From a virus, in the IMG/VR virus record IMGVR_UViG_3300021961_008141, positions 1 through 21,819 of that record: a stretch of DNA of 21,819 nt; one strand, 5' to 3'. Made by a program: the position numbers and the translations under genes. Positions 3,792 to 16,396 of this stretch are shown here, in pieces; position 1 is the stretch's first letter, and each line of letters begins with the position of its first letter. The notes under the pieces were generated by a model, which saw nothing but the letters and a program-made list of their open reading frames with translations, did not search any database and was not told the origin of the DNA.

Positions 3792-4463
3792 ATGAAATTT
3801 CTAACATTTCTAAACACCGGATGTCTTGATATCTGTTTGAATATGTTGAAGTCCGCTGAGAATGTGGGCATCAATATGGACGACTTTATAATCGCTTGCA
3901 TGGATGAGGATGTTTATAAGTCCTTAATTCTTAAGGGTTATAAATCAGCATTTCTCTACATGAATCAAGAATTGAGAGAATATCAAGATTGGACATTCAA
4001 CCAGAACAGTGGATTTAGAAATATTGTTAGACATAAATGGAAGATCATCGATGGGGTCCATAAGGAGCATCCTAATTTGATGTGGGTTGATACTGATATT
4101 GTATTCAAGGAAAACCCCGTAGATATTCTTACAGGGCACGAAGAAGTATTATTTCAGACTGATGCTCCTGGTTCCACAATCTGCACCGGATTTATAGTCT
4201 TCAATGAGACTCCAGAGTGTCGTCAGTTGGTTGCTGAGTGTGGTGCAGATGATAGTGATGATGATCAACTCATTATGAATCGCATTGCACTGAGTAAATA
4301 TAACGATCATGTTGCTTTGTTATCAGAAGATCTTTTCCCAAATGGTAATGTATACTATCAGCAAGGTAGAAAAGAGAACGCTATGATTGTTCATAATAAT
4401 TGGATGGTTGGAGTAGAAACCAAGATCAATAAGTTTAAAGAGGAAGGACTGTGGTTTATTTGA
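3792..4463 (+). CDS. GT-A glycosyltransferase, nucleotide-diphospho-sugar transferase (GT77-like)
   Basis: This 223-residue protein resembles the Nucleotid_trans (GT77-like) fold: an N-terminal nucleotide-binding region, 'GFRNIVRHKWKII' before the metal motif, then WVDTDIVF with DTD at 100-102. CTGFIVFN (131-138), DDQ (157-159) and HNNW (201-204) follow, matching the usual order in this family. It would transfer a sugar from an NDP donor using a divalent metal; donor and acceptor are unknown. It is cytosolic, without a membrane span. It is the first gene of the operon and overlaps the next by 13 nt. Members are best known from plants and other eukaryotes. Confidence 0.7.
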   Translation: MKFLTFLNTGCLDICLNMLKSAENVGINMDDFIIACMDEDVYKSLILKGYKSAFLYMNQELREYQDWTFNQNSGFRNIVRHKWKIIDGVHKEHPNLMWVDTDIVFKENPVDILTGHEEVLFQTDAPGSTICTGFIVFNETPECRQLVAECGADDSDDDQLIMNRIALSKYNDHVALLSEDLFPNGNVYYQQGRKENAMIVHNNWMVGVETKINKFKEEGLWFI

Positions 4464-5314
4464 ATCAAGACTATTTGAGACCAAAGTCTCTTACGCCAAC
4501 CTATCCTCCATATCATAAAGGTGAGTATATTGAAGAATACTTTTATAGTCACTATCAGCAGTTAGATATCAAACCAGAACGGGAGTATATTGATATCTTC
4601 TGGTCTAATATCTTTTGCAATAAGATTTGGGCTGGGCAACCTTATCCAGATTTACAGAATCTTCTCTATGAAACTCTGAGTTCTGATGGCAAGTATTTTA
4701 CAGTTTGTCAGCAAGACGATGGACCTTTTGAGGACTTCCCAGAAGATACTATGATCTTCTCTGCAGGTGGTAATCGTAAAAAAGGTAATGTGATACCTAT
4801 CCCACTGGTTTGCTCTTCTATCCCTAAAGAAACGATTCCCAATAGGGAACACAAATACTTTGCTTCCTTTATTGGTTCTAATACTTACTGGGTTAGAACT
4901 GATATGGTAAAGGCATTCAGAGGTAAGGATGATTGTCTTGTGAAAGCAGGTAACTGGGATATTAACGTGGGTGAAGAGAAACTGAATAACTTCCTTGATG
5001 TTATGTCTGCTTCTAAGTTCTCCCTGTGCCCCAGAGGATACGGGACAACAAGTTTCAGACTCTACGAATCCTTTCAACTCGGAACAGTTCCAGTTTATAT
5101 TTCAGACGATCATGCACTTCCTTGGTCTGATGAACTGGATTGGGAAGAGTTTTGTGTTATAATTGATGATGAGAACATTGGGAATACCTACGATATTCTC
5201 AAGAGTATTTCAGACGATACATACAATGAGATGTTGAAGAAAGGTCAAGAACTCTATCAAGATTACTTCTCTCTTCAAGGAGTCTTTGAAAATATTATCA
5301 AAAGGGTGCAATGA
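4451..5314 (+). CDS. Exostosin-family (GT47-like) glycosyltransferase
   Basis: This 287-residue GT-B-type protein has the exostosin signature in its second half: ASFIGSNTYWVRTDM (about 138-152), SKFSLCPRGYGTTSFRLYES (188-207) and GTVPVYISDDHALPW (211-225). The Pro-Arg-Gly and Arg-Leu-(Tyr)-Glu residues are those conserved in the NDP-sugar site of GT47 enzymes. The start is GTG 4451 with AGGAAGG just upstream; the TTG at 4460 is an alternative. It lacks the membrane anchor of animal exostosins. Together with its neighbours it is a candidate for an early step of phage glycan assembly. ATGA overlap with the next gene. Confidence 0.8.
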   Translation: MVYLNQDYLRPKSLTPTYPPYHKGEYIEEYFYSHYQQLDIKPEREYIDIFWSNIFCNKIWAGQPYPDLQNLLYETLSSDGKYFTVCQQDDGPFEDFPEDTMIFSAGGNRKKGNVIPIPLVCSSIPKETIPNREHKYFASFIGSNTYWVRTDMVKAFRGKDDCLVKAGNWDINVGEEKLNNFLDVMSASKFSLCPRGYGTTSFRLYESFQLGTVPVYISDDHALPWSDELDWEEFCVIIDDENIGNTYDILKSISDDTYNEMLKKGQELYQDYFSLQGVFENIIKRVQ

Positions 5315-6060
5315 AAAAAGTTCTTCTAGTCTTTGGGTCTTATGGAGATCAAAGGCAACAATTCTTTGACACTTATATGTCTCCAAGAAATCAAGAGTAT
5401 GCTGATAAACACGGTTTTGAGTATCTTGAGTTAAAGGATAACCTGTATAAGTATCGTGGTAATTATACCTGGTTGAAGTTTACTATCCTTGAGCAAATGC
5501 TTGAGGAAGGTTATGTGACCGACGGTGATATTGTTACTCATTTGGATGCAGATATGTGCATTGCAAATACTGAGATTCCATATGAGACTAGTAAATCATT
5601 CTCGTATGCAATTGATTCTGGTAATACTCATTGTATGGGTAACTATTCTATCAAAGTCAATGAGTGGTCACGTCAACTTGTTGCCAATATTCTTTCGGAA
5701 GATAGATATCAAGCATTGAATGATGTGGTGTCTAGACATGAACGATTTGGGTATGTGAATAGTTTCTGGCATGAATTTAGAGAGCAAGCATCCTGGTATT
5801 CCCTTGCGGGGATTAAGAGACATTCTGACGAATCTTTTTGGAATCTTCCTGATTATGGTTGGCACTCTGATAAAACAGAGTGGACCATCTATTCTTTAGA
5901 AGATCTTTATGCCCATGTTGACATTCTTCCTACTGCTTGGAATGTGACAGAAATGGAAGAAGAATCTAGTTGTGAGTTTTTAATTAATGAAGTAAAAAGA
6001 GAAGATGTCATTATTCGCCACTTTGCTGGAGGGCAACAGTGGAGAAAGGAGTGGTTTTAA
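5311..6060 (+). CDS. GT-A glycosyltransferase, GMA12/MNN10 (GT34)-like
   Basis: This 249-residue protein has LVFGSYGDQR at the N-terminus, YTWLKFTILEQML (52-64) and the metal-binding HLDADM with DAD at 79-81, followed by a mostly acidic C-terminal half. RHFAGGQQW (236-244) resembles the late His-(x)-Ala-Gly motif of GT34 enzymes. It is expected to transfer a hexose or pentose from an NDP-sugar. Assignment to GT34 rather than another GT-A family is tentative. Start ATG 5311 overlaps the preceding stop by four bases. Confidence 0.6.
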   Translation: MKKVLLVFGSYGDQRQQFFDTYMSPRNQEYADKHGFEYLELKDNLYKYRGNYTWLKFTILEQMLEEGYVTDGDIVTHLDADMCIANTEIPYETSKSFSYAIDSGNTHCMGNYSIKVNEWSRQLVANILSEDRYQALNDVVSRHERFGYVNSFWHEFREQASWYSLAGIKRHSDESFWNLPDYGWHSDKTEWTIYSLEDLYAHVDILPTAWNVTEMEEESSCEFLINEVKREDVIIRHFAGGQQWRKEWF

Positions 6061-6062
6061 GT

Positions 6063-6347
6063 ATGAATTTTCTATTTAAAATTAGAGTTTTTTTGTGGTC
6101 AATTGTATCCGAAATTGAATATAAATTGTATCCATATAAAAATAGTGAACCTGAAGTTGACTATTTTTATATTGTTAAAAATGATGCTACCGGTGAAGAG
6201 TATACTATATTAGAATGGATTAAAAATTTTGATAATAGACTCGAAAAAATTGAAGATAATTATCTCCACATAAACTCAAATCTTAATAAAGTTGATAAAC
6301 TGGATCTAGATCTTTTGGATTTAAAAAATAGGATATATAAAAAATGA
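6063..6347 (+). CDS. Small unknown protein within the glycan operon
   Basis: This 94-residue protein has a hydrophobic/aromatic N-terminus (MNFLFKIRVFLWSIVSEI), an acidic middle, and a C-terminal Leu/Asn/Lys-rich helix with heptad character (about 60-94), suggesting a membrane-associated coiled coil. An AAGGAG lies about 10 nt before ATG 6063; the longer in-frame start at 6039 would overlap the previous gene more. It could tether glycosyltransferases or act as an assembly factor, but no family is recognised. This stretch looks more AT-rich than the genes on either side. Confidence 0.55.
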   Translation: MNFLFKIRVFLWSIVSEIEYKLYPYKNSEPEVDYFYIVKNDATGEEYTILEWIKNFDNRLEKIEDNYLHINSNLNKVDKLDLDLLDLKNRIYKK

Positions 6348-6982
6348 ACAATCAGAAATTAGCAATGAATTTAGTAGAAGTTGATACTGACCTTACAATG
6401 GTCAATGAGGGGCATGTTGGTGGATTTATCATTCAAAAAGATCCTGCAACATATACGCCAAAACTTTGGAAATATATTTGCGAAAATTTTAATATCAAAA
6501 GTATTTTAGATATTGGATGTGGAATGGGACATGCTATAGGGGAGTTTAATAAGTATTGTGATGAAGTTGTTGGAGTTGATGGATCCAAATATGTAGTTGA
6601 AAATTCACTATTTACTGAACAAATTTTTTATCATGATTTTGCTGTTGGAACTTTAGAAACAGAAGATAGATATGATCTATGTTGGTCTTGCGAATTTGTC
6701 GAACACGTTGATGAAAGGTATAGAGATAATTTCTTAGAAGTATTTTCTTATGCCAAATATTTGGCAATTACTTATGCTGAACCTGGACAACCTGGGCATC
6801 ATCACGTAAATTGTCAACCAAAAGAATATTGGATTGAACATCTCAAAAGATATGGATTTGAATATGATGAAAAAATTACAAGTCAACTCAGAGAAGTTGC
6901 ATATGAAGATGCTATCGAAATAAACCCAAAATATAAGGATAATCACTTTAATCTGAGAGGACTCTTCTTCATTAAAAAATGA
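6344..6982 (+). CDS. SAM-dependent methyltransferase (class I)
   Basis: This 212-residue Rossmann methyltransferase carries motif I SILDIGCGMGHA (53-64), the acidic motif II VVGVDGS (75-81) and a motif IV-like DLCWSCEFVEHV (111-122). A distinctive AEPGQPGHHHVN (145-156) is followed by EYWI...GFEY. It probably methylates a sugar or glycan hydroxyl, given its neighbours. It is clearly paralogous to the gene at 12659: the same CEFVEHV, the same AEPGQ.GHHHVN and the same RGLFF end. ATGA overlaps at both ends. Confidence 0.8.
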   Translation: MNNQKLAMNLVEVDTDLTMVNEGHVGGFIIQKDPATYTPKLWKYICENFNIKSILDIGCGMGHAIGEFNKYCDEVVGVDGSKYVVENSLFTEQIFYHDFAVGTLETEDRYDLCWSCEFVEHVDERYRDNFLEVFSYAKYLAITYAEPGQPGHHHVNCQPKEYWIEHLKRYGFEYDEKITSQLREVAYEDAIEINPKYKDNHFNLRGLFFIKK

Positions 6983-7716
6983 AAAAAATTAAAAATTTTA
7001 CGATTTGTTTACACTGTGGGTGTAGTAAAGATATTGTCGATGCTCAAATGGAAGCATTGTCTCCTCTAAATTTAAAGTATAAGGTGACCTGGAATAATAG
7101 GATTGATAGGCATCCAGAAATGTATCAGTCCTATTCAGAACTTATAAATCACTCCATTGCCACTTCTAATGATGAATGGGTCATTCTAATTAATGATAGA
7201 ACGCATCCGACAGTAGATGAAATAGAAAAAATGCTCTATTTGTTGGAAAATGGATATTCCTGCGTTTTTTTGTATAGTGTTGGATTTATGGGATTCTCTA
7301 AAGAATTGATCCGTAAAGTAGGATGGTGGGATCAAAGATTTACCTATGGTGGATGGGAAGATCGTGATTGGGTTTTTAGAATAAAGAAGAAAAATCTTTC
7401 ACTATATGAAAGTATAGAGAGTACATATGATATGAGTTGGAAGTCTCCTTTGAATGTTCCTGGTGCTGTCTTGTCCGGTCAGTTCTGGGAAAAGAAATAT
7501 GATATATCTTCCGAAATCGTATATCAAAAATTGGATGAGGAGAGTTATCCTGAGTGGGATAAGACATTGGGTGATGGTAGGGAAGATATTAGTTCTTCCT
7601 GGTTATCTTGGAATTACTCACAACTAAATATTATGTACGATCCTAGGTATAAACCTGGATCTGGTTTATCTGGATCATCTATTCTAAGAAATAGAGAAAT
7701 TGTGGAGAATTTTTAA
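6979..7716 (+). CDS. GT-A type glycosyltransferase (GT2-like)
   Basis: This 245-residue protein begins with a GT2-like strand pattern (FTICLHCGCSKDIVDAQMEA). It has WVILINDRTHP, where NDR (72-74) stands in the place of the DxD motif, and GFMGFSKELI followed by YGGWEDRDWVFRI with the acidic WEDRD (126-130), like the catalytic base region of galactosyltransferase-type GT-A enzymes. The metal-motif deviation (NDR rather than DxD) is notable and may mean altered metal use. Substrates are unknown. Start ATG 6979 overlaps the previous stop. Confidence 0.6.
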   Translation: MKKIKNFTICLHCGCSKDIVDAQMEALSPLNLKYKVTWNNRIDRHPEMYQSYSELINHSIATSNDEWVILINDRTHPTVDEIEKMLYLLENGYSCVFLYSVGFMGFSKELIRKVGWWDQRFTYGGWEDRDWVFRIKKKNLSLYESIESTYDMSWKSPLNVPGAVLSGQFWEKKYDISSEIVYQKLDEESYPEWDKTLGDGREDISSSWLSWNYSQLNIMYDPRYKPGSGLSGSSILRNREIVENF

Positions 7717-8334
7717 ATGCATTCAATTGATAGTATAGAAGAAGGCATTTTAAACTCCAAAGAATTTCCTGCAGATACTTTTCCTAAACCTTGCGGTAGA
7801 GATACATTTTATAGAAAATGTATGACTTTAGTTAAAGAAAGAACGGGATTATTTTTAGAGTTTGGAGTATGGACAGGTGGGACTATAAATTTCCTTTCTT
7901 CATTAAACCCGGATAAAAAGTTTTATGGGTTTGATTCATTTGAGGGACTTCCAGAAAATTGGGAAGGTATTGTTAATAAAGGACATTTTAAAACAGATAT
8001 TCCTAAGGTTAATGATAATGTTGAATTGGTGGTAGGATGGTTTGACCAAACTCTAGATAAATTTTTAGAGGAACATGATGAAACAATATCTTTCGTCCAT
8101 TTGGATGCTGATCTATATTCTTCAATTGATTATGTTTTAAAAAAAATTGAATCTAAAATAGAAGATAAGTGTGTCTTTATATTTGACGATTTTCTAGAAT
8201 TTCCAAATTATAAAGATCATAGTATAAAGTGCTTCTTAGAATTCTTGGAAAGAACTAATTACACATATACTCCAGTAGGACATGTGAAAGAAGTCTTCTC
8301 CAGATGCGCCTTCATTATCAACGTAAATAATTGA
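7717..8334 (+). CDS. TylF/macrocin-O-methyltransferase family protein
   Basis: This 205-residue class I methyltransferase has LFLEFGVWTGGTINFL (45-60) as the SAM loop, FYGFDSFEGLPENW (69-82), FVHLDADLYSS (126-136) and VFIFDDF (153-159). The Asp residues at 130, 132 and 157-158 match the Mg-binding residues of TylF-type sugar O-methyltransferases. It probably O-methylates a deoxy- or hexose unit of the glycan, which can cap chain ends. It begins immediately after the previous stop. Confidence 0.82.
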   Translation: MHSIDSIEEGILNSKEFPADTFPKPCGRDTFYRKCMTLVKERTGLFLEFGVWTGGTINFLSSLNPDKKFYGFDSFEGLPENWEGIVNKGHFKTDIPKVNDNVELVVGWFDQTLDKFLEEHDETISFVHLDADLYSSIDYVLKKIESKIEDKCVFIFDDFLEFPNYKDHSIKCFLEFLERTNYTYTPVGHVKEVFSRCAFIINVNN

Positions 8335-8338
8335 GAAC

Positions 8339-9298
8339 TTGAGAATACTATTCATAACAACCCAAAATCCAACGAAACAGGGAGACTTATTAGAAGTTTC
8401 TCTGCTTCATGGTTTGAGAACAGTTCTTGGCGAAGACTGTGTAGATTATCCAAGAAAGAAAATAATGTATCATGATTTTTCTGATACTCCGAAAGATACA
8501 TTACACGGAAGGGGATTTAGTTTATTAACAACACCAATTCAAGACATTGAAGATAGAGACATATTCAAACAAAAATTTGATTATGTAATTTATGGTGATG
8601 GTCATATGTATGGGGAAGTTCCAGAAATTGAAGGTGTAAATGAACTTGCAGATGGTAATGTATGGATCATTGATGGGCACGACTTATATGGCAGTGCTCC
8701 TAGAATGATTTCATATAATGATGAAGTGGTTATAGGATCTCAATTCACAAATTGTTTTAAGAGAGAACTTATAGAGTCTGATGATGAGAGTGTATATCCT
8801 ACTGGATTTGGTATTCCAGAAGAACGAATAAGAGAAGTTGATTTTTCAATTAAAGATCAACTCTACCAAAAGACTGCTCCCTCCTATTCTTTGTTTGAAG
8901 ATGCTGCAGATATGGGAGGAGGATTTTCTCATCATAAGTTTACTGTAGAGGATGACTATTATAATGATCTTTCTAGATCTTGGTTTGGGTTAACATGCAA
9001 GAAAGGTGGGTGGGATTGTCTTAGACACTATGAAATTATAGCGGCTGGTTCTTTACTTCTTTTCAGAGACTATCACAATAAACCAAGACTATGTTCCCCT
9101 CAAGAACTTCCTTGTTATGTTTACTCCTCAAAAGAACAACTATATAGTTTGATGTCCGAGTTAGTAGTGGAAAACAGACCAACATACAAATACTTACGAA
9201 TGCTTGAAAAGCAACGAGAATGGTTGTATAATGTAGGCACTACTTCTGCTAGAGCAAATAGTATCCTAAACACCTTACAAAAAGAAAATGATCATTGA
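8339..9298 (+). CDS. GT-B glycosyltransferase, CgeB-like
   Basis: This 319-residue protein opens with MRILFITTQNPTKQGDLLEV, typical of a GT-B N-terminal domain. Its second domain ends with GGWDCLRHYEIIAAGSLLLF (223-242), matching the nucleotide-sugar-binding Glu/Ala-Gly region of CgeB/GT1-2-like proteins. The start is TTG 8339, because MRILFITTQ begins exactly there and no better start lies nearby. There is no membrane span. The specific sugar is unknown. It overlaps the next gene by 11 nt. Confidence 0.6.
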   Translation: MRILFITTQNPTKQGDLLEVSLLHGLRTVLGEDCVDYPRKKIMYHDFSDTPKDTLHGRGFSLLTTPIQDIEDRDIFKQKFDYVIYGDGHMYGEVPEIEGVNELADGNVWIIDGHDLYGSAPRMISYNDEVVIGSQFTNCFKRELIESDDESVYPTGFGIPEERIREVDFSIKDQLYQKTAPSYSLFEDAADMGGGFSHHKFTVEDDYYNDLSRSWFGLTCKKGGWDCLRHYEIIAAGSLLLFRDYHNKPRLCSPQELPCYVYSSKEQLYSLMSELVVENRPTYKYLRMLEKQREWLYNVGTTSARANSILNTLQKENDH

Positions 9299-9971
9299 TA
9301 AAAATCTCTCCAAGATGAATACAAACCATCATCTTGCTTTTGAATATCTGGAATCTAAATTTACTAAGGAAGAAAAAAATTATAGAGTTATAGATATTGG
9401 TGGAGGAGAAAATTCGTGGGTTGGTGATTGGGCGACTCATCTTGTCGATAAATTTGTGGATCCAAAAAATTCACTTAAGTCTTTTGGAGCACAAGTTTTT
9501 AGCGTTGATATTGATGATACAAAAGAATGGGATCTTGTTTTGGAAGATGTAGAAAAAAACGGTTTGTTCGATTTTGCTGTTTGCTCTCATACTCTTGAAG
9601 ACGTTAACAATCCTCAAGTCGCTTGCAGAATGATTAATCGAATTGCAAAATCTGGGTATATTAGTATGCCATCAAAGTATGCTGAACTGGCAACCTTTGA
9701 AGGAAAATATGGACTTAGTTATTGCGGGTATCATCATCATAGATGGATCTATCAAATTAGAAATGATGTCTTGATTGGTGTTCCGAAAATGAACTTCCAT
9801 GATAATGTTGAGTTTGAATTCAATCAATCAGCAGCTGTTCATTCTGAAATAGCGTTTTTATGGGAAGATAACTTTGATTATGAATTCTTGTATCCACATC
9901 AAATGCTAGATAATAGAGAAGGTCCAGATAGAATTGCTGAGTTATTTGAAGATGACGATCTTATTCTCTGA
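9288..9971 (+). CDS. Class I SAM methyltransferase, third type in the cluster
   Basis: This 227-residue protein has motif I RVIDIGGGENSW (33-44), FSVDID (71-76) and a post-II region FDFAVCSHTLEDVNNP (94-109), like Methyltransf_11-type enzymes. A later CGYHHHRWIY segment may form part of the acceptor pocket. It probably methylates a sugar precursor or glycan. It is distinct from the paired methyltransferases at 6344 and 12659. ATG 9288 lies inside the previous gene. Confidence 0.72.
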   Translation: MIIDKNLSKMNTNHHLAFEYLESKFTKEEKNYRVIDIGGGENSWVGDWATHLVDKFVDPKNSLKSFGAQVFSVDIDDTKEWDLVLEDVEKNGLFDFAVCSHTLEDVNNPQVACRMINRIAKSGYISMPSKYAELATFEGKYGLSYCGYHHHRWIYQIRNDVLIGVPKMNFHDNVEFEFNQSAAVHSEIAFLWEDNFDYEFLYPHQMLDNREGPDRIAELFEDDDLIL

Positions 9972-9980
9972 GGTAAACAA

Positions 9981-10955
9981 ATGAGCAAAGTATTAATGAC
10001 AGGTGGACTTGGGTTCATCGGTTCTCACTGTATCGACAAATGGAAATCGGTTGGTTGGGATGTATGTGCTGTAGATAACATGTCTACTAATGCTATTCCT
10101 ACAGATCATCCTCTCGTAGATAATGTGGAAGTTATTCAGAAAAATATTCTGGATATTGATTATAAAACCTTACCGAAGGTAGATCTTGTCCTTCATCTTG
10201 CTTCTCCTGTTGGACCAGTTGGTGTCCTTAAACATTCTGGCAATATGGCAAGAATTATCCTTGATGATATTTACTGGGCAATCAATACAGCTAAGCATAA
10301 CAACTGCCCACTAGTATTCATCTCAACTTCTGAGATATACGGTCATCGTGATGAGAAGAGTTATCTTGAAGAAGAAAGTGATAAAGTTCTTCATGGAGAA
10401 TTCACGGTTAGAAATGAATATGCCATTGCTAAACTTTTATCAGAAATTGTTTTAACTAATCAGGCAAAGATTAATCCAGATTTTAGATATCAAATTATTA
10501 GACCATTCAATGTGACTGGTAAGTATCAACTTCCAGATGGTGGATTTGTTCTTCCCAGATTTGTTAATCAGGCATTAAATGGAGAAGACATTACTGTTTA
10601 TTATGATGGTCTTCAACTTAGAGCCTTCACTTGGGTTAAAGACATTGTTGATGGCATCTATTTAACTTCTATTGCAGATGATAAAGATTGGAACGAAGAG
10701 TGGAATATTGGAAATGAAAGGAATGAAAGAACAATTCTTTATCTTGCAGAAAGAGTGAAGGAAATTACAGGGACAGAATCTGAGATTGTCCATGTTGATC
10801 CAGTAGAACTTCATGGGCCACTTTTTGCAGAGGCGCCAGAAAAAATTCCAAATAGTGAAAAAATAAAAGAAAGACTTGGGTGGGCACCAACCAAAGGAGT
10901 TGACGAAGTTATTCGAGAAGTGGTAGAATACTACCAAAGTGGAGTTTGTGTTTAA
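9981..10955 (+). CDS. Extended-SDR NAD-dependent sugar epimerase/dehydratase
   Basis: This 324-residue enzyme has the NAD-binding TGGLGFIGS (7-15), a catalytic Ser/Thr region FISTSEIYG (113-121) and the YxxxK pair Y147/K151 (YAIAK). The substrate domain carries RPFNVTGKYQ and a C-terminal LGW. The order matches GalE/RmlB/UXS-type enzymes acting on UDP-, dTDP- or GDP-sugars; the exact reaction cannot be told. The next gene, a sugar-dehydrogenase-like protein, overlaps by one base (TAATG), so the two may act in sequence. Confidence 0.8.
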   Translation: MSKVLMTGGLGFIGSHCIDKWKSVGWDVCAVDNMSTNAIPTDHPLVDNVEVIQKNILDIDYKTLPKVDLVLHLASPVGPVGVLKHSGNMARIILDDIYWAINTAKHNNCPLVFISTSEIYGHRDEKSYLEEESDKVLHGEFTVRNEYAIAKLLSEIVLTNQAKINPDFRYQIIRPFNVTGKYQLPDGGFVLPRFVNQALNGEDITVYYDGLQLRAFTWVKDIVDGIYLTSIADDKDWNEEWNIGNERNERTILYLAERVKEITGTESEIVHVDPVELHGPLFAEAPEKIPNSEKIKERLGWAPTKGVDEVIREVVEYYQSGVCV

Positions 10956-11671
10956 TGAAGATCGGAATTGTTGGATATGGTGAGATAGGAAGTAGTATCG
11001 CCAAAGTATATGAGTCATTTGAAGGATTTGATGTAAGGGTTGTAGATCCATATCAGAATCGTAATGATGATATTGAGGGTGTTGAAATTCTCAATATTTG
11101 TATTCCCTTTATTGAAAACTTTGTAAAGGTTGTTCAGGATTATATTTCACAGGCCAATCCACGATACACTATTGTTCACTCTACGGTTGCTCCTGGAACT
11201 ACCGAACTTGTTGGTGGTAAAGTATGCCATTCTCCTATGAGAGGTCTTCACCCAAATCTTGATCTGGGTATGAAGACCTTCTTGAAGTATATTGGTCCAG
11301 TAGACCAAGAAGCAGCATCTTTGTATCAGGAGCATCTGAATAGTCTAGGAATCAAAACACATATTTGTAAGAATAGTAAGACTACCGAATATGCTAAGTT
11401 GTTAGACACGACTTACTATGGTGTCTGTATTGCATTCCATGCCGATGTTGCTCAGGTATGTGAGAATGAGGAACTTGAATTTGATGAAGTTATGACCTTG
11501 TTCAATCAAAGTTATAATGAAGGATATACTGAACTTGGTAAACCCAATGTGGTTCGACCAGTTCTTTATGCAACTAAAAAGATTGGAGGACACTGTGTGG
11601 TTCCCAATGCAAAAATCCTTAAGGATTATATGAACACTAAAACAGTCCAATCTATTCTTGATTATGAGTAA
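10955..11671 (+). CDS. Compact UDP-glucose/UDP-ManNAc dehydrogenase-like protein
   Basis: This 238-residue protein has the Rossmann glycine motif GIVGYGEIGS (4-13), STVAPGTTE (76-84, as in UDP-sugar dehydrogenases), an internal helix with TTEYAKLLDTTYY (143-155) including a conserved-looking Lys148, and KIGGHCVVPNAKIL (209-222), where Cys214 matches the catalytic Cys of WecC/UGD enzymes (GGHC). Full enzymes are about 400 residues with a C-terminal domain; that domain is missing. It may be an intact minimal oxidoreductase or have another role. ATG 10955 is chosen over the upstream TTG. Confidence 0.65.
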   Translation: MKIGIVGYGEIGSSIAKVYESFEGFDVRVVDPYQNRNDDIEGVEILNICIPFIENFVKVVQDYISQANPRYTIVHSTVAPGTTELVGGKVCHSPMRGLHPNLDLGMKTFLKYIGPVDQEAASLYQEHLNSLGIKTHICKNSKTTEYAKLLDTTYYGVCIAFHADVAQVCENEELEFDEVMTLFNQSYNEGYTELGKPNVVRPVLYATKKIGGHCVVPNAKILKDYMNTKTVQSILDYE

Positions 11672-12662
11672 AAAGAAAATAGCATTTCATAGTTATCAAT
11701 TGGGTGATCGTGGAACTGAGATTTGTCTTTATAAGTATGCAAAATACAATAGAGAAATTCTAGGAAATGAATCTATAATTATTTCTACCAGTTCTAGACC
11801 AACTCCGTCATTGGATAGATTTGAAGATTTTGAAACTATTCTTTATCCCGATGTTTGGATCAATGATGGTAAGAATGATTCGTTGAGATCTACCTTAGAA
11901 GATATTTGTGAGAAGAATCGAGTTGATGTCTTCTATGCAATTAAAGGTGGAGAAGATGATGGATTTATGCCAACCAATACAAAGAGACTGGCTCATTGTA
12001 TTTTTAGAATGGATCAACCGCATGGAGATGTATACTCTGGTGTGTGTAAATATATCTCCGAAAAGCACGGAGGAATTCACCCATACGTTCACCATATCCT
12101 TGAAAAGGAAGCACCTCATATTGAGGATGATTTTAGAGAAGAGTTTGGAATTCCTAAGGATGCATTAGTTCTTGGTAGGCACGGTGGGCACGATACATTC
12201 AGTCTAGGATTTACTCACGGTGCTATCATATCTGCCTTAGAAAATAGAAGCGACCTTTGGTTTGTGTTTCTCAATACGAGACCATTTGTAAAACACGAAA
12301 GAGTAATATATCTTCCGTGGACTATGGATGAAGAATACAAAGCAAAGTTTGTGAATACTTGCGATGCTATGATGCACGCTAGATATGATGGAGAAATTTT
12401 TAGTTTATCAACTGCCGAATTTTCTATTCGCAATAAACCGGTTATAACTTGGAATCCCCCAAATCCACCAAGTCACTATGATACCGGTCACATCAGTGTT
12501 ATGGGTGAAGACGCCATCTATTACGAAGATGCAAATGATCTATTCTTTATTTTAACCAATTTGGATAAGAAAGAAATTAATAATTTGGAGTGGGGTAAAT
12601 ACTGTGGTGACTATACTGCAGAAAATGTAATGAATGAATTTAAGGAGGTTTATTTGAAATGA
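11664..12662 (+). CDS. GT4-like (GT-B) glycosyltransferase
   Basis: This 332-residue enzyme has an N-terminal domain (IAFHSYQLGDRGTEI), a second-domain start FGIPKDALVLGRHGGHDTFS (161-180), typical of GT4 proteins, and an EX7E motif from E244 to E252 (EIFSLSTAE) within DAMMHARYDGEIFSLSTAE. It is predicted to transfer a sugar with retention, donor unknown. ATG 11664 overlaps the preceding stop by 8 nt and is preferred over TTG 11658. An AAGGAGG at its 3' end serves the next gene. Confidence 0.75.
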   Translation: MSKKKIAFHSYQLGDRGTEICLYKYAKYNREILGNESIIISTSSRPTPSLDRFEDFETILYPDVWINDGKNDSLRSTLEDICEKNRVDVFYAIKGGEDDGFMPTNTKRLAHCIFRMDQPHGDVYSGVCKYISEKHGGIHPYVHHILEKEAPHIEDDFREEFGIPKDALVLGRHGGHDTFSLGFTHGAIISALENRSDLWFVFLNTRPFVKHERVIYLPWTMDEEYKAKFVNTCDAMMHARYDGEIFSLSTAEFSIRNKPVITWNPPNPPSHYDTGHISVMGEDAIYYEDANDLFFILTNLDKKEINNLEWGKYCGDYTAENVMNEFKEVYLK

Positions 12663-13333
12663 CAGTAGAAACTTTAGATCAAACGCACGGACCCGATATT
12701 ATTGAGGGTCATCTTGGAGGATGCTCTATTGGTGGTGATGGTGGTACATATTATCCCATCATGTGGAAAAAAATGATTGAGAAGTATTCCGTAAAAACTG
12801 TACTTGATATCGGATGTGGTAGAGGATATTCTAGTAAATATTTCCAATCAATTGGTTGCGATATTCTTGGAGTTGATGGAAGCACCAAAGCAGGAGAAAT
12901 GTCACTAATACCAGAACATTTTTTGTTAAATGATTATGAAGGAGGACCTGCTCTTTCTAGATCTGAAATCGAATACAATGAAAAACCAATTAAAGATTTT
13001 GTTTTTGATTTGTGTTGGTGTTGTGAATTTGTGGAGCATGTTTGGGAAGAATATTCTCAAAACTTTATTGACGATTTTAAAGGTTGCAAATATGTTGCTA
13101 TGACATTTGCCGAGCCAGGTCAAGGTGGTCATCATCATGTTAATGAACAACCAGAAGAATATTGGATCAAAAAACTAGAGGCAAATGGGTTCGAGTATTT
13201 GATAGAAGAAACTGAAGAATTGAGGAGATTTGCTTCTGATGATGCAGATGAAAGGATGAAGATTCCTAATGTTCCATACTTTATACCTCACTTCGTTCAT
13301 AGAGGATTGTTCTTTAAAAATAAGGATGTTTGA
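12659..13333 (+). CDS. SAM-dependent methyltransferase, paralogue of the 6344 gene
   Basis: This 224-residue protein has LDIGCGRG (49-56), LGVDGS (70-75), FDLCWCCEFVEHV (116-128), AEPGQGGHHHVN (151-162), EYWI (167-170) and a final RGLFFKNK. These blocks line up with the gene at 6344, so the two arose by duplication or parallel acquisition and diverged. It may methylate a different position or sugar. AAGGAGG (12642-12648) lies 10 nt before ATG 12659. It is followed by the heptose kinase with a one-base overlap. Confidence 0.82.
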   Translation: MTVETLDQTHGPDIIEGHLGGCSIGGDGGTYYPIMWKKMIEKYSVKTVLDIGCGRGYSSKYFQSIGCDILGVDGSTKAGEMSLIPEHFLLNDYEGGPALSRSEIEYNEKPIKDFVFDLCWCCEFVEHVWEEYSQNFIDDFKGCKYVAMTFAEPGQGGHHHVNEQPEEYWIKKLEANGFEYLIEETEELRRFASDDADERMKIPNVPYFIPHFVHRGLFFKNKDV

Positions 13334-14280
13334 TGATCATTTCAAGTTGCCCTTTGAGGATCTCTCTTTTTGGGGGATCCACCGACAATCCATATTTTAT
13401 TGAAAAATATGGTAGAGGATCGGTAATTAGTTTTGCCAGCAATTTGAAGACTTATATAAGTCTTCACGAAGATAAATTAGGATATAATATCCAGGGTAAA
13501 AAATATATTATTAATTACTCTAGACGTGAAGAAACAAAATTTATATCTGATATTCAAAATGAATTAGTTCGTATAGTTCTAAACTATTTCGATTGTCTCC
13601 CAATTACAATATCAATGTTAAGTGATGCTTATTCACAGGGTAGTGGACTGGCTTCCTCTTCATCTTATATAATTTCGTTGATTAAATCTATTTCTTTATA
13701 TAAAGAAATTAATATGTCAGATAATGAAATATGCGAATTGGCATTCCTGTTGGAGCAAGAAATAAATCCATATTGTGGATATCAAGATCCATATGGTTGT
13801 GGTGTTGGGGGATTTAAAAGAATTGATTTTGAGAAGTCTGGTAATATTAAATATAATTTTTTATCGACAGATTTTTTTAAACATTATGATGCTCATTTAA
13901 TTTTTACGGGCATTACTAGAAATTCTAAAATTATACTCAAAGATGTAACATCCAATATTGACAAATCACTTCCCCTTTTAGATATCGTTGACAAAGCTCA
14001 TAAATCTCTTTACGATAGAGACTATGATGTGGTTTTGGAATTGATGTTGGATAGTTGGAAGCAAAAAAAGAATACAAGCTCTTTAATTGCCGAAAATAAA
14101 GTTATCCGCGAAATAGATGAAGAACTTACTTACAATGATACTGTGTTGTCCCATAAGTTGTGTGGTGCAGGTAACGGTGGATTTTTTCTAACATTTTCCA
14201 AACCAAATACCTTGAAAATTTCGCACAAGTCGATTAAAATAAACGTAGAGTCTAATGGTGTGATTGGAAAAATTTTATGA
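13333..14280 (+). CDS. hddA: GHMP kinase, heptose 7-phosphate kinase (HddA)-like
   Basis: This 315-residue GHMP kinase carries motif 1 PLRISLFGGSTD (7-18), motif 2 GSGLASSSSY (103-112), GYQDPYGCGVGGFK (149-162) with Asp152, and motif 3 CGAGNGG (277-283). The 'PLRISLFGGSTD' and 'QDPYGCGVGG' forms are those of D-glycero-alpha-D-manno-heptose-7-phosphate kinase (HddA), which phosphorylates C1 using ATP. The adjacent GmhA-like isomerase and phosphatase/nucleotidyltransferase support a heptose role. Fucokinase- or galactokinase-type substrates remain possible. ATG 13333 overlaps the preceding stop (TGATG). Confidence 0.8.
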   Translation: MIISSCPLRISLFGGSTDNPYFIEKYGRGSVISFASNLKTYISLHEDKLGYNIQGKKYIINYSRREETKFISDIQNELVRIVLNYFDCLPITISMLSDAYSQGSGLASSSSYIISLIKSISLYKEINMSDNEICELAFLLEQEINPYCGYQDPYGCGVGGFKRIDFEKSGNIKYNFLSTDFFKHYDAHLIFTGITRNSKIILKDVTSNIDKSLPLLDIVDKAHKSLYDRDYDVVLELMLDSWKQKKNTSSLIAENKVIREIDEELTYNDTVLSHKLCGAGNGGFFLTFSKPNTLKISHKSIKINVESNGVIGKIL

Positions 14281-14780
14281 ACCCATTTAAAGAGTATATT
14301 GATGTTCTTCAATGTGCCCATATGGGCAACGAATTTGAAAAGTTTCAAGAGGCATATGATTCTCATGCAAGAATAATAATATTGGGAAATGGTGGAAGTA
14401 ATTCTATCGCTTCGCACATTTCTCAGGATTATATGAAATTTCATGGTAAGAAAGTATCTATTCTTTCAGATCCATCTATGCTAACAATGCTCACCAATGA
14501 CTTTGGATATGATAATGCCTATCAGAAGTTTTTAGAGTATTATGTTGAAGAAGATACTCTTGTAATCATTATGAGCTCTGGCGGAGAATCTAAAAATATT
14601 TTGAATTGTTTAGTTTGGTGTGAAGAAAACTGTATTGATTATGGAATTCTGACCGGATTTTCTCCTGATAACACAATCAGGAGAAGAGCAACAAATGCTT
14701 TATGGAATTATTATATTGCCAGTGAGGACTATGGTGTGGTAGAATGTGTTCATCAAATCTTTCTTCATGGTGTTGTATGA
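14277..14780 (+). CDS. gmhA: SIS-domain sedoheptulose-7-phosphate isomerase (GmhA-like)
   Basis: This 167-residue protein has LGNGGSNSIASHISQDY (36-52), MSSGGESKNIL (99-109) with the serines that bind the sugar phosphate, and EDYGVVECVHQIFLH (150-164), whose His/Gln/His residues match the C-terminal catalytic segment of GmhA. It would convert sedoheptulose 7-phosphate to D-glycero-D-manno-heptose 7-phosphate, the substrate of the upstream kinase. It is somewhat shorter than typical bacterial GmhA. ATGA overlaps both neighbours. Confidence 0.85.
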   Translation: MNPFKEYIDVLQCAHMGNEFEKFQEAYDSHARIIILGNGGSNSIASHISQDYMKFHGKKVSILSDPSMLTMLTNDFGYDNAYQKFLEYYVEEDTLVIIMSSGGESKNILNCLVWCEENCIDYGILTGFSPDNTIRRRATNALWNYYIASEDYGVVECVHQIFLHGVV

Positions 14781-15499
14781 GATATTGTTTTGATATTGAT
14801 GGAACTCTTTGCGATACTCCTAACGATGAAAACGGAAAACCAGATTATTTAAATGCTAAACCATTTCCATATATGGTCGAGCAAGTAAATAGTCTGTATA
14901 ATGATGGGCATTACATTATTATGCAAACTGCCAGAGGAAAAGGTTCTGGTATCGATCATACTGAGTTGACTAAAAAACAACTTAGGGAATGGGGATTTAA
15001 TTATCACGAATTGTTCCCAATGTTTTGTAAACCAACCGCAGACATCTTCATTGATGATAAGGGGGAAAATATTGAGAGTTGGAAAAGAAATCAACCACAA
15101 GTAAGAGGAATAATTGCAGGATCGTTTGACATAATACATCCCGGATATGCTAGGATGTTTAAAGAATCCAAGTCTTATTGCAATCATCTTACAATCGCTC
15201 TTCACGAAAATCCTTCAATCGATAGACCAAAAAAAATACCTCCTATTCATACAATTGAAGAAAGAAAAGAAATTTTAATGTCTATTAAATATATTGATGA
15301 CGTTGTAGTTTATCAAAAAGAACATGAACTATATCAATGTTTGAAAAGTGGCAATTATCACGTTCGATTTCTTGGCGATGATTATATGGATTGTTCTTAT
15401 ACTGGAGATGAATTGGACATAAAGATAGTTTATATTAATAGAAATCATGATTATTCTACAACAGAATTGAAAAGGCAAATCGTTAAATCTTGGAGGTAA
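14777..15499 (+). CDS. HAD phosphatase fused to a cytidylyltransferase-like domain
   Basis: This 240-residue two-domain protein begins with a HAD domain (1-105): DIDGT (6-10, nucleophile Asp6 and acid Asp8), TARG (51-54), Lys85 and IDD (92-94). A nucleotidyltransferase domain (108-240) follows: GIIAGSFDIIHPGYARM (111-127), containing the HxGH-type motif as HPGY (121-124), and a C-terminal YSTTELKRQI. HldE-C, TagD and related enzymes use this fold to join NTP to a sugar or alditol phosphate. With HddA and GmhA the obvious role is removal of the 7-phosphate and formation of NDP-heptose. The ATG at 14777 is set by the HAD start; the longer frame is rejected. Confidence 0.78.
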   Translation: MRYCFDIDGTLCDTPNDENGKPDYLNAKPFPYMVEQVNSLYNDGHYIIMQTARGKGSGIDHTELTKKQLREWGFNYHELFPMFCKPTADIFIDDKGENIESWKRNQPQVRGIIAGSFDIIHPGYARMFKESKSYCNHLTIALHENPSIDRPKKIPPIHTIEERKEILMSIKYIDDVVVYQKEHELYQCLKSGNYHVRFLGDDYMDCSYTGDELDIKIVYINRNHDYSTTELKRQIVKSWR

Positions 15500-15502
15500 A
15501 GA

Positions 15503-16396
15503 ATGAAATCTTTAGTAACGGGTGGAGCAGGATTCATTGGGTCTCACATTGTTGATGAACTCATTGAAATCGGGCATGAAGTCATTGTTATTGACAATGA
15601 GAGTGCTGAATCAAATGAAGAGTTCTATTGGAATGATAAGGCACAAAATTACAAGTATGATATTCGCGACTATGAAAAGACAAGACCTCTTTATGAAGGT
15701 GTTGATTATGTTTTTCATACTGCCGCAGAAGCAAGAATTCAACCTGCTATTTTGAATCCCATTGAAGCAGTAAGTATTAATTGTGTGGGCACGGTAACCG
15801 TTCTTCAGTGCGCTCGCGAGGCAGGTGTAAAGAAATTAATGTATTCTTCTACTTCCTCCGGATACGGATTTAATGAACCACCCAATGATGAAACTCAGAG
15901 AGATGACTGTCTGAATCCATATTCAGTATCTAAAGTTGCTGGTGAAAAACTTTGCTCAATGTATACCAGTCTATTTGGTCTAAGGACTGTTACGTTTAGG
16001 TATTTCAACGTTTATGGTGAAAGGTCGCCCGTCAGCGGTCAATATGCTCCAGTAATCGGCATCTTCTTGCGTCAGCGAGGAGACAATGAATCTTTGACCA
16101 TAGTTGGTGATGGTGAGCAGCGTAGAGACTTTACTCACGTTTCTGACGTTGTTCAGGCAAACATTCTTGCGGCAACTAAGGAAGTTGATGAGGAATCCTA
16201 TGGTAAACTGTATAATGTTGGTAATGGGTCAAACTACTCCATTAATGAAATTGCAAACGCCATATCCAAAAATCAAACCAATATACCTCCGCGAATTGGT
16301 GAAGCAATGACAACTCTTGCAGATAACAGTAGGTTAAAGACAACCTTTGGATGGGAACCTAAAGTAAATTTAATGGATTGGATTTCTGAACAATGA
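15503..16396 (+). CDS. Extended-SDR nucleotide-sugar epimerase (GalE/WbpP-like)
   Basis: This 297-residue enzyme has VTGGAGFIGSH (5-15), SSTSSGYG (115-122), YSVSK with Y140/K144, and RYFNVYGERSPVSGQYAPVI, the substrate loop found in UDP-GlcNAc/UDP-glucose 4-epimerases. A GGAGG ribosome-binding site lies just before ATG 15503. It directly follows the NDP-heptose enzyme, so it may epimerise or dehydrate the NDP-heptose; GalE-type action on UDP-hexoses is equally possible. It is close to full length, and its C-terminus has GWEPKVNLMDWI, common to this family. Confidence 0.82.
   Translation: MKSLVTGGAGFIGSHIVDELIEIGHEVIVIDNESAESNEEFYWNDKAQNYKYDIRDYEKTRPLYEGVDYVFHTAAEARIQPAILNPIEAVSINCVGTVTVLQCAREAGVKKLMYSSTSSGYGFNEPPNDETQRDDCLNPYSVSKVAGEKLCSMYTSLFGLRTVTFRYFNVYGERSPVSGQYAPVIGIFLRQRGDNESLTIVGDGEQRRDFTHVSDVVQANILAATKEVDEESYGKLYNVGNGSNYSINEIANAISKNQTNIPPRIGEAMTTLADNSRLKTTFGWEPKVNLMDWISEQ

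What the first reader, a model, noticed from the sequence alone, without database searches (positions are those of the whole stretch)
13333..16396. Phage heptose pathway that mixes two known routes
GmhA-like isomerase, a GHMP-type HddA-like kinase, a HAD phosphatase and a nucleotidyltransferase lie side by side with overlapping ends. Known biology: HddA belongs to the GDP-heptose route, which ends with HddC, a mannose-1-phosphate-guanylyltransferase-like enzyme. ADP-heptose routes use a PfkB-type kinase with a HxGH-type transferase (HldE). Here the HddA-type kinase is paired with a HxGH-type transferase and no HddC is seen. The phage may make a non-standard NDP-heptose. I infer this from domain types alone.
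Basis: partly seen in the sequence, partly recalled or inferred. Interest (0 to 1): 0.8.

Follow-up and report, generated by a model that had tools for sequence, protein, structure and literature searches.

The report
Hybrid phage sugar-activation gene cassette
Ocean viruses of cyanobacteria, and a few of their hosts, carry a fixed block of genes that seems to make an activated seven-carbon sugar by joining the kinase of one known route to a modified transferase of the other, a combination I could not find described.

Summary
Window 13333-16396 encodes four overlapping or near-contiguous genes: a GHMP kinase (nearest HddA/WcbL), a short GmhA-like SIS isomerase, one polypeptide fusing an AfhF-like HAD phosphatase to an HxGH-superfamily nucleotidyltransferase, and an SDR epimerase. 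Untruncated relatives keep this set: 80 IMG/VR contigs found through the kinase, 76 found through HAD-NT, phage SynMITS9220M01, and four picocyanobacterial chromosomes. Across 50 whole records an HddC-like gene occurs once (SynMITS9220M01, beside its own second HddA); PfkB is almost absent. A huge phage fuses kinase and transferase in one ORF. One chromosomal copy has a broken HAD domain and the only GmhB among four host genomes, 3 kb away, which suggests that HAD does GmhB's job. The transferase is not strictly HxGH: all 98 distinct members read HPGY, with Tyr where the second catalytic His belongs. Best reading: isomerase, GHMP kinase, HAD, HPGY transferase and epimerase make a non-GDP NDP-heptose for glycan islands. 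The sugar is inferred; nucleotide and anomer are unknown. A pentose remains possible, because the nearest HAD structure is a phage D-arabinose-1,5-bisphosphate phosphatase. New variant of a known kind.

The parts
13333..14280 (+). GHMP-superfamily sugar kinase, 315 aa, HddA/WcbL-like (KIN)
   Evidence: NF049969 HddA 88 bits; WcbL 4usk Z 34.3 over 305 residues; WcbL R13, D22, S118-120, Q162, D163 = R9, D18, S108-110, Q151, D152, conserved in the family
14277..14780 (+). SIS-domain aldose-ketose isomerase, 167 aa, GmhA-like (SIS)
   Evidence: TIGR00441 gmhA 48 bits; E. coli GmhA E 3e-12, RB69-type arabinose-5-P isomerase no match; D51 where E. coli GmhA has the active-site Glu
14777..15085 (+). 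N-terminal capless HAD phosphatase domain, AfhF-like
   Evidence: 9iqw AfhF Z 12.3, 31% identity; D6, D8, T/S51, K85, D94 present in every complete viral member
15086..15499 (+). C-terminal nucleotidyltransferase domain with HPGY in place of HxGH
   Evidence: CTP_transf_like E 1e-9; TagD 1coz Z 17.3, HldC 5xf2 Z 15.7; HPGY in 98/98 distinct members
15503..16396 (+). Extended SDR nucleotide-sugar epimerase/dehydratase (EPI)
   Evidence: PF01370 E 1e-56; galE 155 bits, heptose_epim 113 bits, both under cut-off; follows HAD-NT in most relatives
3792..13333 (+). Upstream glycan island: glycosyltransferase-like genes, methyltransferases, SDR and UDP-sugar-dehydrogenase-like genes; likely users of the product
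   Evidence: Nucleotid_trans, Exostosin GT47, TylF, Methyltransf_11, Epimerase, UDPG_MGDP_dh

Best explanation
The block is a self-contained nucleotide-sugar pathway. Proposed steps: SIS converts sedoheptulose 7-phosphate to D-glycero-D-manno-heptose 7-phosphate; the GHMP kinase phosphorylates C1 to give the 1,7-bisphosphate; the HAD domain removes the 7-phosphate; the fused HPGY transferase couples the 1-phosphate to a nucleotide (CTP weakly favoured, ATP or UTP possible, GTP unlikely); the SDR enzyme epimerises or otherwise alters the NDP-heptose, which neighbouring glycosyltransferases use. It is a hybrid of the GDP-heptose route (kinase) and the ADP-heptose route (transferase superfamily). 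Shown by sequence: domain identities, fusion, gene order, conserved catalytic residues, absence of HddC from nearly all records. Inferred: substrate, order of steps, nucleotide, anomer and use.
For: Kinase, SIS and HAD-NT in the same order in all untruncated contigs of 80 found by kinase; all 66 contigs found by HAD-NT that reach far enough upstream carry the kinase. Kinase and transferase fused in one 458-aa ORF in huge phage LR756511. HddC-like in 1 of 50 whole records, none in those of 126-236 kb apart from SynMITS9220M01; PfkB scarce (two other hits are RmlA-like). Kinase best matches heptokinase WcbL, Z 34.3 vs 31.5 for fucokinase. Of four picocyanobacterial genomes with the cassette, only G311 has a damaged HAD and only G311 has GmhB (157 bits), 3 kb away. 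In these four genomes the cassette transferase is the only rfaE_dom_II match. SIS resembles GmhA, not the RB69-type arabinose-5-P isomerase.
Against: No window protein reaches a curated heptose-family cut-off. Nearest HAD structure is a D-arabinose-1,5-diphosphate phosphatase. WcbL appears to bind the alpha anomer (PMC4691232), whereas HldE-type transferases use beta (established knowledge), so one enzyme must have changed. SIS has Asp for the GmhA active-site Glu. A review states that heptoses are absent from the cyanobacterial LPS core (PMC4390846). The GmhB correlation rests on one case among four genomes.
Confidence: 0.62

Rival explanations
1. Same logic, other sugar: a pentose such as D-arabinose (isomerase, 1-kinase, 1,5-bisphosphate phosphatase, nucleotidyltransferase), as in the DNA-arabinosylation modules of RB69-like phages.
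For: HAD domain nearest to AfhF, a phage D-arabinose-1,5-diphosphate phosphatase (Z 12.3), found in RB69-type modules (PMC6024577).
Against: SIS matches GmhA (E 3e-12) and not the RB69-type arabinose-5-P isomerase; the kinase is nearest to a heptokinase; the RB69-type module has no annotated GHMP kinase or HxGH-type transferase; host copies sit in polysaccharide islands. The same HAD family also sits beside a PfkB kinase and an HPGH transferase in P-SSM2, so it is not arabinose-specific by context.
Confidence: 0.2
2. The product is ordinary: the GHMP kinase has simply replaced PfkB and makes the beta-1-phosphate, so the cassette yields standard ADP-beta-heptose as reported for other viral heptose enzymes. 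(This is a version of the best explanation, not an alternative to all of it.)
For: Viral heptose enzymes are reported to make ADP-heptose (PMC11573728, PMC11461863); phages P-SSM2 and P-TIM68 use a PfkB kinase with an HPGH transferase and the same HAD family; Cr30 pairs a GHMP kinase and SIS with an unlinked HPGH transferase and has no NTP_transferase.
Against: HPGY is universal in this cassette and was not seen outside it, which suggests an altered active site; fold and profile lean to cytidylyl- at least as much as to adenylyltransferases.
Confidence: 0.25
3. The transferase acts on a non-anomeric phosphate (TagD-like, for example a CDP-polyol) and is only a neighbour of the heptose genes.
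For: TagD is the best structural match (Z 17.3).
Against: Fusion to the kinase in LR756511 and to the HAD in all 79 cassette loci where both domains were found; such a route would not need a 1-kinase and a phosphatase.
Confidence: 0.06
4. The real product is GDP-heptose: an HddC outside the fragment or from the host finishes the pathway.
For: SynMITS9220M01 carries an HddC-like gene (60 bits); hosts hold general NTP transferases.
Against: In SynMITS9220M01 that HddC-like gene lies beside its own second HddA-like kinase (287 bits), a separate set; no HddC in the other 126-236 kb records; host hits are all far below the 300-bit cut-off.
Confidence: 0.05

Closest known systems
[quoted passage not shown]
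   Same: GmhA-like isomerase, HddA/WcbL-type GHMP kinase with the tested catalytic residues, a phosphatase step
   Different: No HddC; HxGH-superfamily transferase instead; HAD is not GmhB and is fused to the transferase
ADP-heptose route (GmhA, HldE or HldA/HldC, GmhB, HldD)
   Same: Transferase domain of the HldE-C/HldC superfamily, isomerase, an SDR epimerase at the end
   Different: GHMP not PfkB kinase; HPGY not HxGH; HAD of another family; epimerase not assignable to HldD
Cyanophage PfkB-type sets (P-SSM2, P-TIM68)
   Same: Same HAD family and transferase superfamily in the same phage family
   Different: PfkB kinase, HPGH transferase, separate genes, no SIS seen next to them
Phage arabinose activation (AfhF; RB69 ORF055c/ORF53_52c)
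   Same: Isomerase, phosphatase and nucleotide-transfer logic; homologous HAD
   Different: SIS without BLASTP similarity to this one, NTP_transferase-type pyrophosphorylase, no annotated GHMP kinase
Synechococcus phage SynMITS9220M01 heptose genes (PMC7378029)
   Same: Carries the same cassette; its kinase, isomerase and epimerase were listed as heptose LPS genes
   Different: The fused HAD-transferase was left hypothetical and the mixed route was not noted

Membership tests
GDP-heptose route | HddA-type GHMP kinase with catalytic residues of WcbL | tested here: met
   R9, D18, S108-110, Q151, D152 conserved; Z 34.3 to WcbL; the HddA equivalog cut-off (600 bits) is not reached: 88 bits
GDP-heptose route | HddC guanylyltransferase (NTP_transferase fold) | tested here: not met
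   Absent from the window and from 49 of 50 records once two RmlA-like hits and one marginal hit (13.7 bits) are set aside
GDP-heptose route | GmhB-type HAD-IIIA phosphatase | tested here: not met
   TIGR00213 finds none in five viral records of 126-236 kb nor in SynMITS9220M01; the fused HAD is AfhF-like
ADP-heptose route | PfkB-type kinase (HldE-N/HldA) | tested here: not met
   Kinase is GHMP; PfkB in 3 of 50 records, one of them under the cut-off
ADP-heptose route | Transferase of the HldE-C/HldC superfamily | tested here: met
   CTP_transf_like over cut-off; HldC Z 15.7, behind TagD 17.3; rfaE_dom_II only 51 of 181.5 bits
ADP-heptose route | HxGH catalytic motif | tested here: not met
   HPGY in 98/98 distinct members
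ADP-heptose route | HldD 6-epimerase | tested here: inconclusive
   heptose_epim 113 of 274.6 bits; galE 155 of 262
Heptose routes in general | GmhA acting on sedoheptulose 7-phosphate | tested here: inconclusive
   gmhA 48 of 209 bits; active-site Glu replaced by Asp
AfhF-like sugar 1,omega-bisphosphate phosphatases | Capless HAD with DxD, T/S, K, D catalytic set | tested here: met
   Intact in all complete viral members; 9iqw Z 12.3
RB69-type arabinose activation | Arabinose-5-phosphate isomerase homologue and NTP_transferase pyrophosphorylase | tested here: not met
   BLASTP finds no SIS match; PF00483 none in the window
STTR5 heptose nucleotidyltransferases | (F/L)xxGRSTT motif with Arg before STT | tested here: not met
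   Tyr at that place in 94 of 96; motif from PMC11573728
Any NDP-heptose pathway | Formation of an NDP-heptose in vitro | not testable with these tools
   Needs enzymes and NMR/MS

The most novel reading that the evidence does not exclude
A third route to activated heptose: a GHMP kinase makes the alpha-1-phosphate and a transferase of the HxGH superfamily, remodelled to HPGY, couples it to CTP (or ATP/UTP) to give an alpha-linked, non-GDP NDP-heptose that, as far as I could find, no organism is known to make. It is carried mainly by cyanophages and exchanged with host surface-glycan islands.
Probability: 0.35. Interest if true: 0.82.

Novelty: new variant of a known kind. Interest (0 to 1): 0.6.

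Why it matters
Tang et al. (Science 2024, as summarised in PMC11461863) found heptose enzymes in viruses but no viral phosphatase; the fused AfhF-like HAD is a candidate for that missing step. The cassette gives a compact, testable hybrid route, a natural family in which a residue thought essential in HxGH transferases (the second His; H31A/D abolish activity in a FAD synthetase, PMC3509593) is always Tyr, and a sign of an unusual sugar in marine picocyanobacteria and their phages, whose LPS core is said to lack heptose (PMC4390846).

Tried and rejected
HddC supplied nearby: rejected for most records; L093 and L094 hits look like RmlA beside RmlB. GmhB in LR756511 (60 bits): it lies in a kinase-plus-HAD ORF that looks like polynucleotide kinase, not GmhB. 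Phage contamination for the cyanobacterial hits: the contigs of G050, G689 and G455 carry ilvC- and clpP-like genes (G050 also ftsZ-like), G311 lies on a 581-kb and G455 on a 1.9-Mb contig, so these are taken as chromosomal. HPGY as a general feature of phage or cyanobacterial transferases: rejected, all other relatives examined read HxGH. Strict link of GHMP kinase with HPGY: not absolute, since phage Cr30 has a GHMP kinase and an HPGH transferase, though not adjacent. Literature searches for a described GHMP-kinase/HxGH-transferase heptose route found none; the library is partial. CDP-6-glucitol enzymes (PMC10918830) use a PF01128 (IspD-type) transferase and are not related. A paper on AfhF was not found in the library.
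Full report
WHAT IS THERE. The window is a 21.8-kb IMG/VR virus record. It carries a cyanophage outer-membrane-protein-like gene, a 2Fe-2S ferredoxin-like gene, tail-fibre-like genes and three tRNAs, and its relatives often carry psbA/psbD (21 of 50 records), so it is most likely a cyanophage fragment. Between 13333 and 16396 lie four co-directional genes: KIN 13333-14280, SIS 14277-14780, HAD-NT 14777-15499 and EPI 15503-16396. KIN/SIS and SIS/HAD-NT share 4-base ATGA overlaps.

DOMAIN IDENTITIES. KIN: GHMP kinase; best curated model is HddA, 88 bits against a 600-bit cut-off; PDB sequence matches are HddA/WcbL kinases. An AlphaFold model (pLDDT 90) is nearest to heptokinase WcbL, Z 34.3, 305 residues, 2.4 A, ahead of fucokinase at 31.5. 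WcbL's tested residues R13, D22, S118-120, Q162 and D163 (PMC4691232) align with R9, D18, S108-110, Q151 and D152, which are conserved in the family. SIS: GmhA-like at 48 bits; Asp51 stands where E. coli GmhA has its active-site Glu, and Glu156 near the place of a Gln (catalytic roles from general knowledge). HAD-NT: one polypeptide; model pLDDT 91.6. The NT half is nearest to TagD (Z 17.3) and HldC (Z 15.7), the HAD half to AfhF, the D-arabinose-1,5-diphosphate phosphatase of phage HY126 (Z 12.3). EPI: an extended SDR of the GalE/HldD kind, not further assignable.

NOT CHANCE. A kinase-based scan of viral contigs gave 80 loci; all that are not cut off next to the kinase hold SIS, HAD and NT downstream in this order, and most hold EPI next. 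Some have one inserted gene, usually a methyltransferase; in L036, L049 and L064 EPI is further away, and in L061 and L066 no close EPI is seen. HAD and NT are fused in 79 of 79 loci where both were found. The reverse scan with HAD-NT gave 76 new loci (many of them the same contigs seen again): 66 carry KIN, the other 10 end within about 700 bases upstream of HAD. Phage SynMITS9220M01 has the same block; its announcement lists the kinase, isomerase and epimerase as heptose LPS genes (PMC7378029).

THE MIXED ROUTE. In 50 whole records HddC (NF049965) rings in four: SynMITS9220M01 (60 bits), two that look like RmlA next to RmlB, and one marginal 13.7-bit hit. In SynMITS9220M01 that gene sits next to a second HddA-like kinase (287 bits), so one phage carries both a classical-looking set and the hybrid cassette. 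PfkB rings in three records. In the 595-kb phage genome LR756511 a single 458-aa ORF joins the kinase to the HPGY transferase, with the same EPI downstream and no HAD domain. Fusion is strong evidence that kinase and transferase act in sequence.

HPGY. Of 98 distinct HAD-NT proteins all read HPGY. Relatives outside the cassette, from phages P-SSM2, P-TIM68, Cr30, CRP-6, Vibrio, Acinetobacter, S-H68 and Agathobaculum phages and six cyanobacterial loci, read HxGH. In a FAD synthetase the second His of this motif is needed for activity (PMC3509593). The family keeps its other signature residues (R222, S227, T229), so it is probably active but chemically altered. The Arg that marks NTP promiscuity in heptose transferases (STTR5, PMC11573728) is Tyr here in 94 of 96, so nucleotide preference cannot be read from it. 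P-SSM2 and P-TIM68 pair a PfkB kinase with HPGH and the same HAD family, so kinase type and motif change together in these examples; Cr30 is an exception (GHMP, HPGH, not adjacent).

HOST COPIES AND THE PHOSPHATASE. Among 399 genomes of one cyanobacterial order four carry the kinase at E <= 1e-40, all with the full block. Three have an intact HAD and no GmhB match in the genome. The fourth, G311, has a damaged HAD (DIDGT to DIDES, the TARG stretch with T51 deleted, D93 to G) beside an intact HPGY domain, and encodes GmhB (157 bits, over cut-off) 3 kb away in the same island. This is one case, but it points to HAD doing GmhB's work, removal of the 7-phosphate of a heptose bisphosphate. The cassette transferase is the only rfaE_dom_II match in these four genomes. 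In a kinase tree two of these host copies (the only two included) form one clade (96/91) inside a viral group of 25 (100/99), consistent with virus-to-host transfer; long branches and midpoint rooting make this tentative. The islands hold glycosyltransferases and sugar-transferase genes, so surface polysaccharide is the likely destination in hosts.

SUGAR IDENTITY. For heptose: kinase nearest to WcbL, SIS nearest to GmhA and not to the RB69-type arabinose-5-P isomerase, GmhB replacement. For a pentose: HAD nearest to AfhF. RB69-type modules have isomerase, pyrophosphorylase and AfhF (PMC6024577), but no annotated GHMP kinase. I put heptose at about three to one.

OPEN CHEMISTRY. HddA/WcbL is taken to make the alpha-1-phosphate (WcbL appears to bind the alpha anomer, PMC4691232) while HldE-type transferases take beta (established knowledge). 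Either the kinase has switched to beta, giving a standard product, or the HPGY transferase takes alpha, giving a new nucleotide sugar. Nothing here decides between these.

HAD and transferase are fused; the motif is HPGY; three proteins plus an epimerase make the set; the cassette is a widespread conserved unit of cyanophages, not a peculiarity of this phage. Databases often call the HAD 'phosphoheptose isomerase' (phrog_1238 and RefSeq records), which is wrong by domain.

Noticed in passing
L002:6941-8944 (SynMITS9220M01 genes 196-198): A second, classical-looking set in the same phage: HddA-like kinase (287 bits), a cupin, and an HddC-like nucleotidyltransferase (60 bits).
   Followed up: partly
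L005:5038-6414 (LR756511, huge phage): GHMP kinase and HPGY nucleotidyltransferase fused in one 458-aa ORF, without the HAD domain or a nearby isomerase.
   Followed up: yes
L192:7829-8536 and 4468-5001 (G311, minus strand): Chromosomal HAD-NT with a degenerate HAD domain and a true GmhB in the same island.
   Followed up: yes
window cassette HAD (phrog_1238) and RefSeq records such as NC_024794: AfhF-like HAD phosphatases are widely annotated as 'phosphoheptose isomerase', a propagated naming error.
   Followed up: partly
L014, L018-L022, L024, L032, L045, L046, L069, L085 (between KIN and SIS); L016, L056, L060 (between SIS and HAD-NT); L052: A methyltransferase-like gene (in L052 a gene that looks like a 2-oxoglutarate/Fe oxygenase) is inserted at two different places within the cassette.
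   Followed up: no
records of L012, L036, L045, L064 (handles G003, G017, G023, G034): psbA/psbD matches are split into pieces with gaps or stops, as introns, insertions or assembly errors would give.
   Followed up: no
L002:4263-5417 (SynMITS9220M01 gene 192): A fusion of a nucleotidyltransferase domain with an RpiB/LacA-type sugar-phosphate isomerase, annotated as 'phosphatase'.
   Followed up: no
window 6344-6982 and 12659-13333: Two methyltransferases that look paralogous (shared LDIGCG and EFVEHV motifs) lie within the glycan island.
   Followed up: no
L091 (Acidimicrobiaceae MAG contig, 13.4 kb): Carries the full cassette; its kinase groups with viral ones, so it may be a misbinned phage contig.
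   Followed up: no
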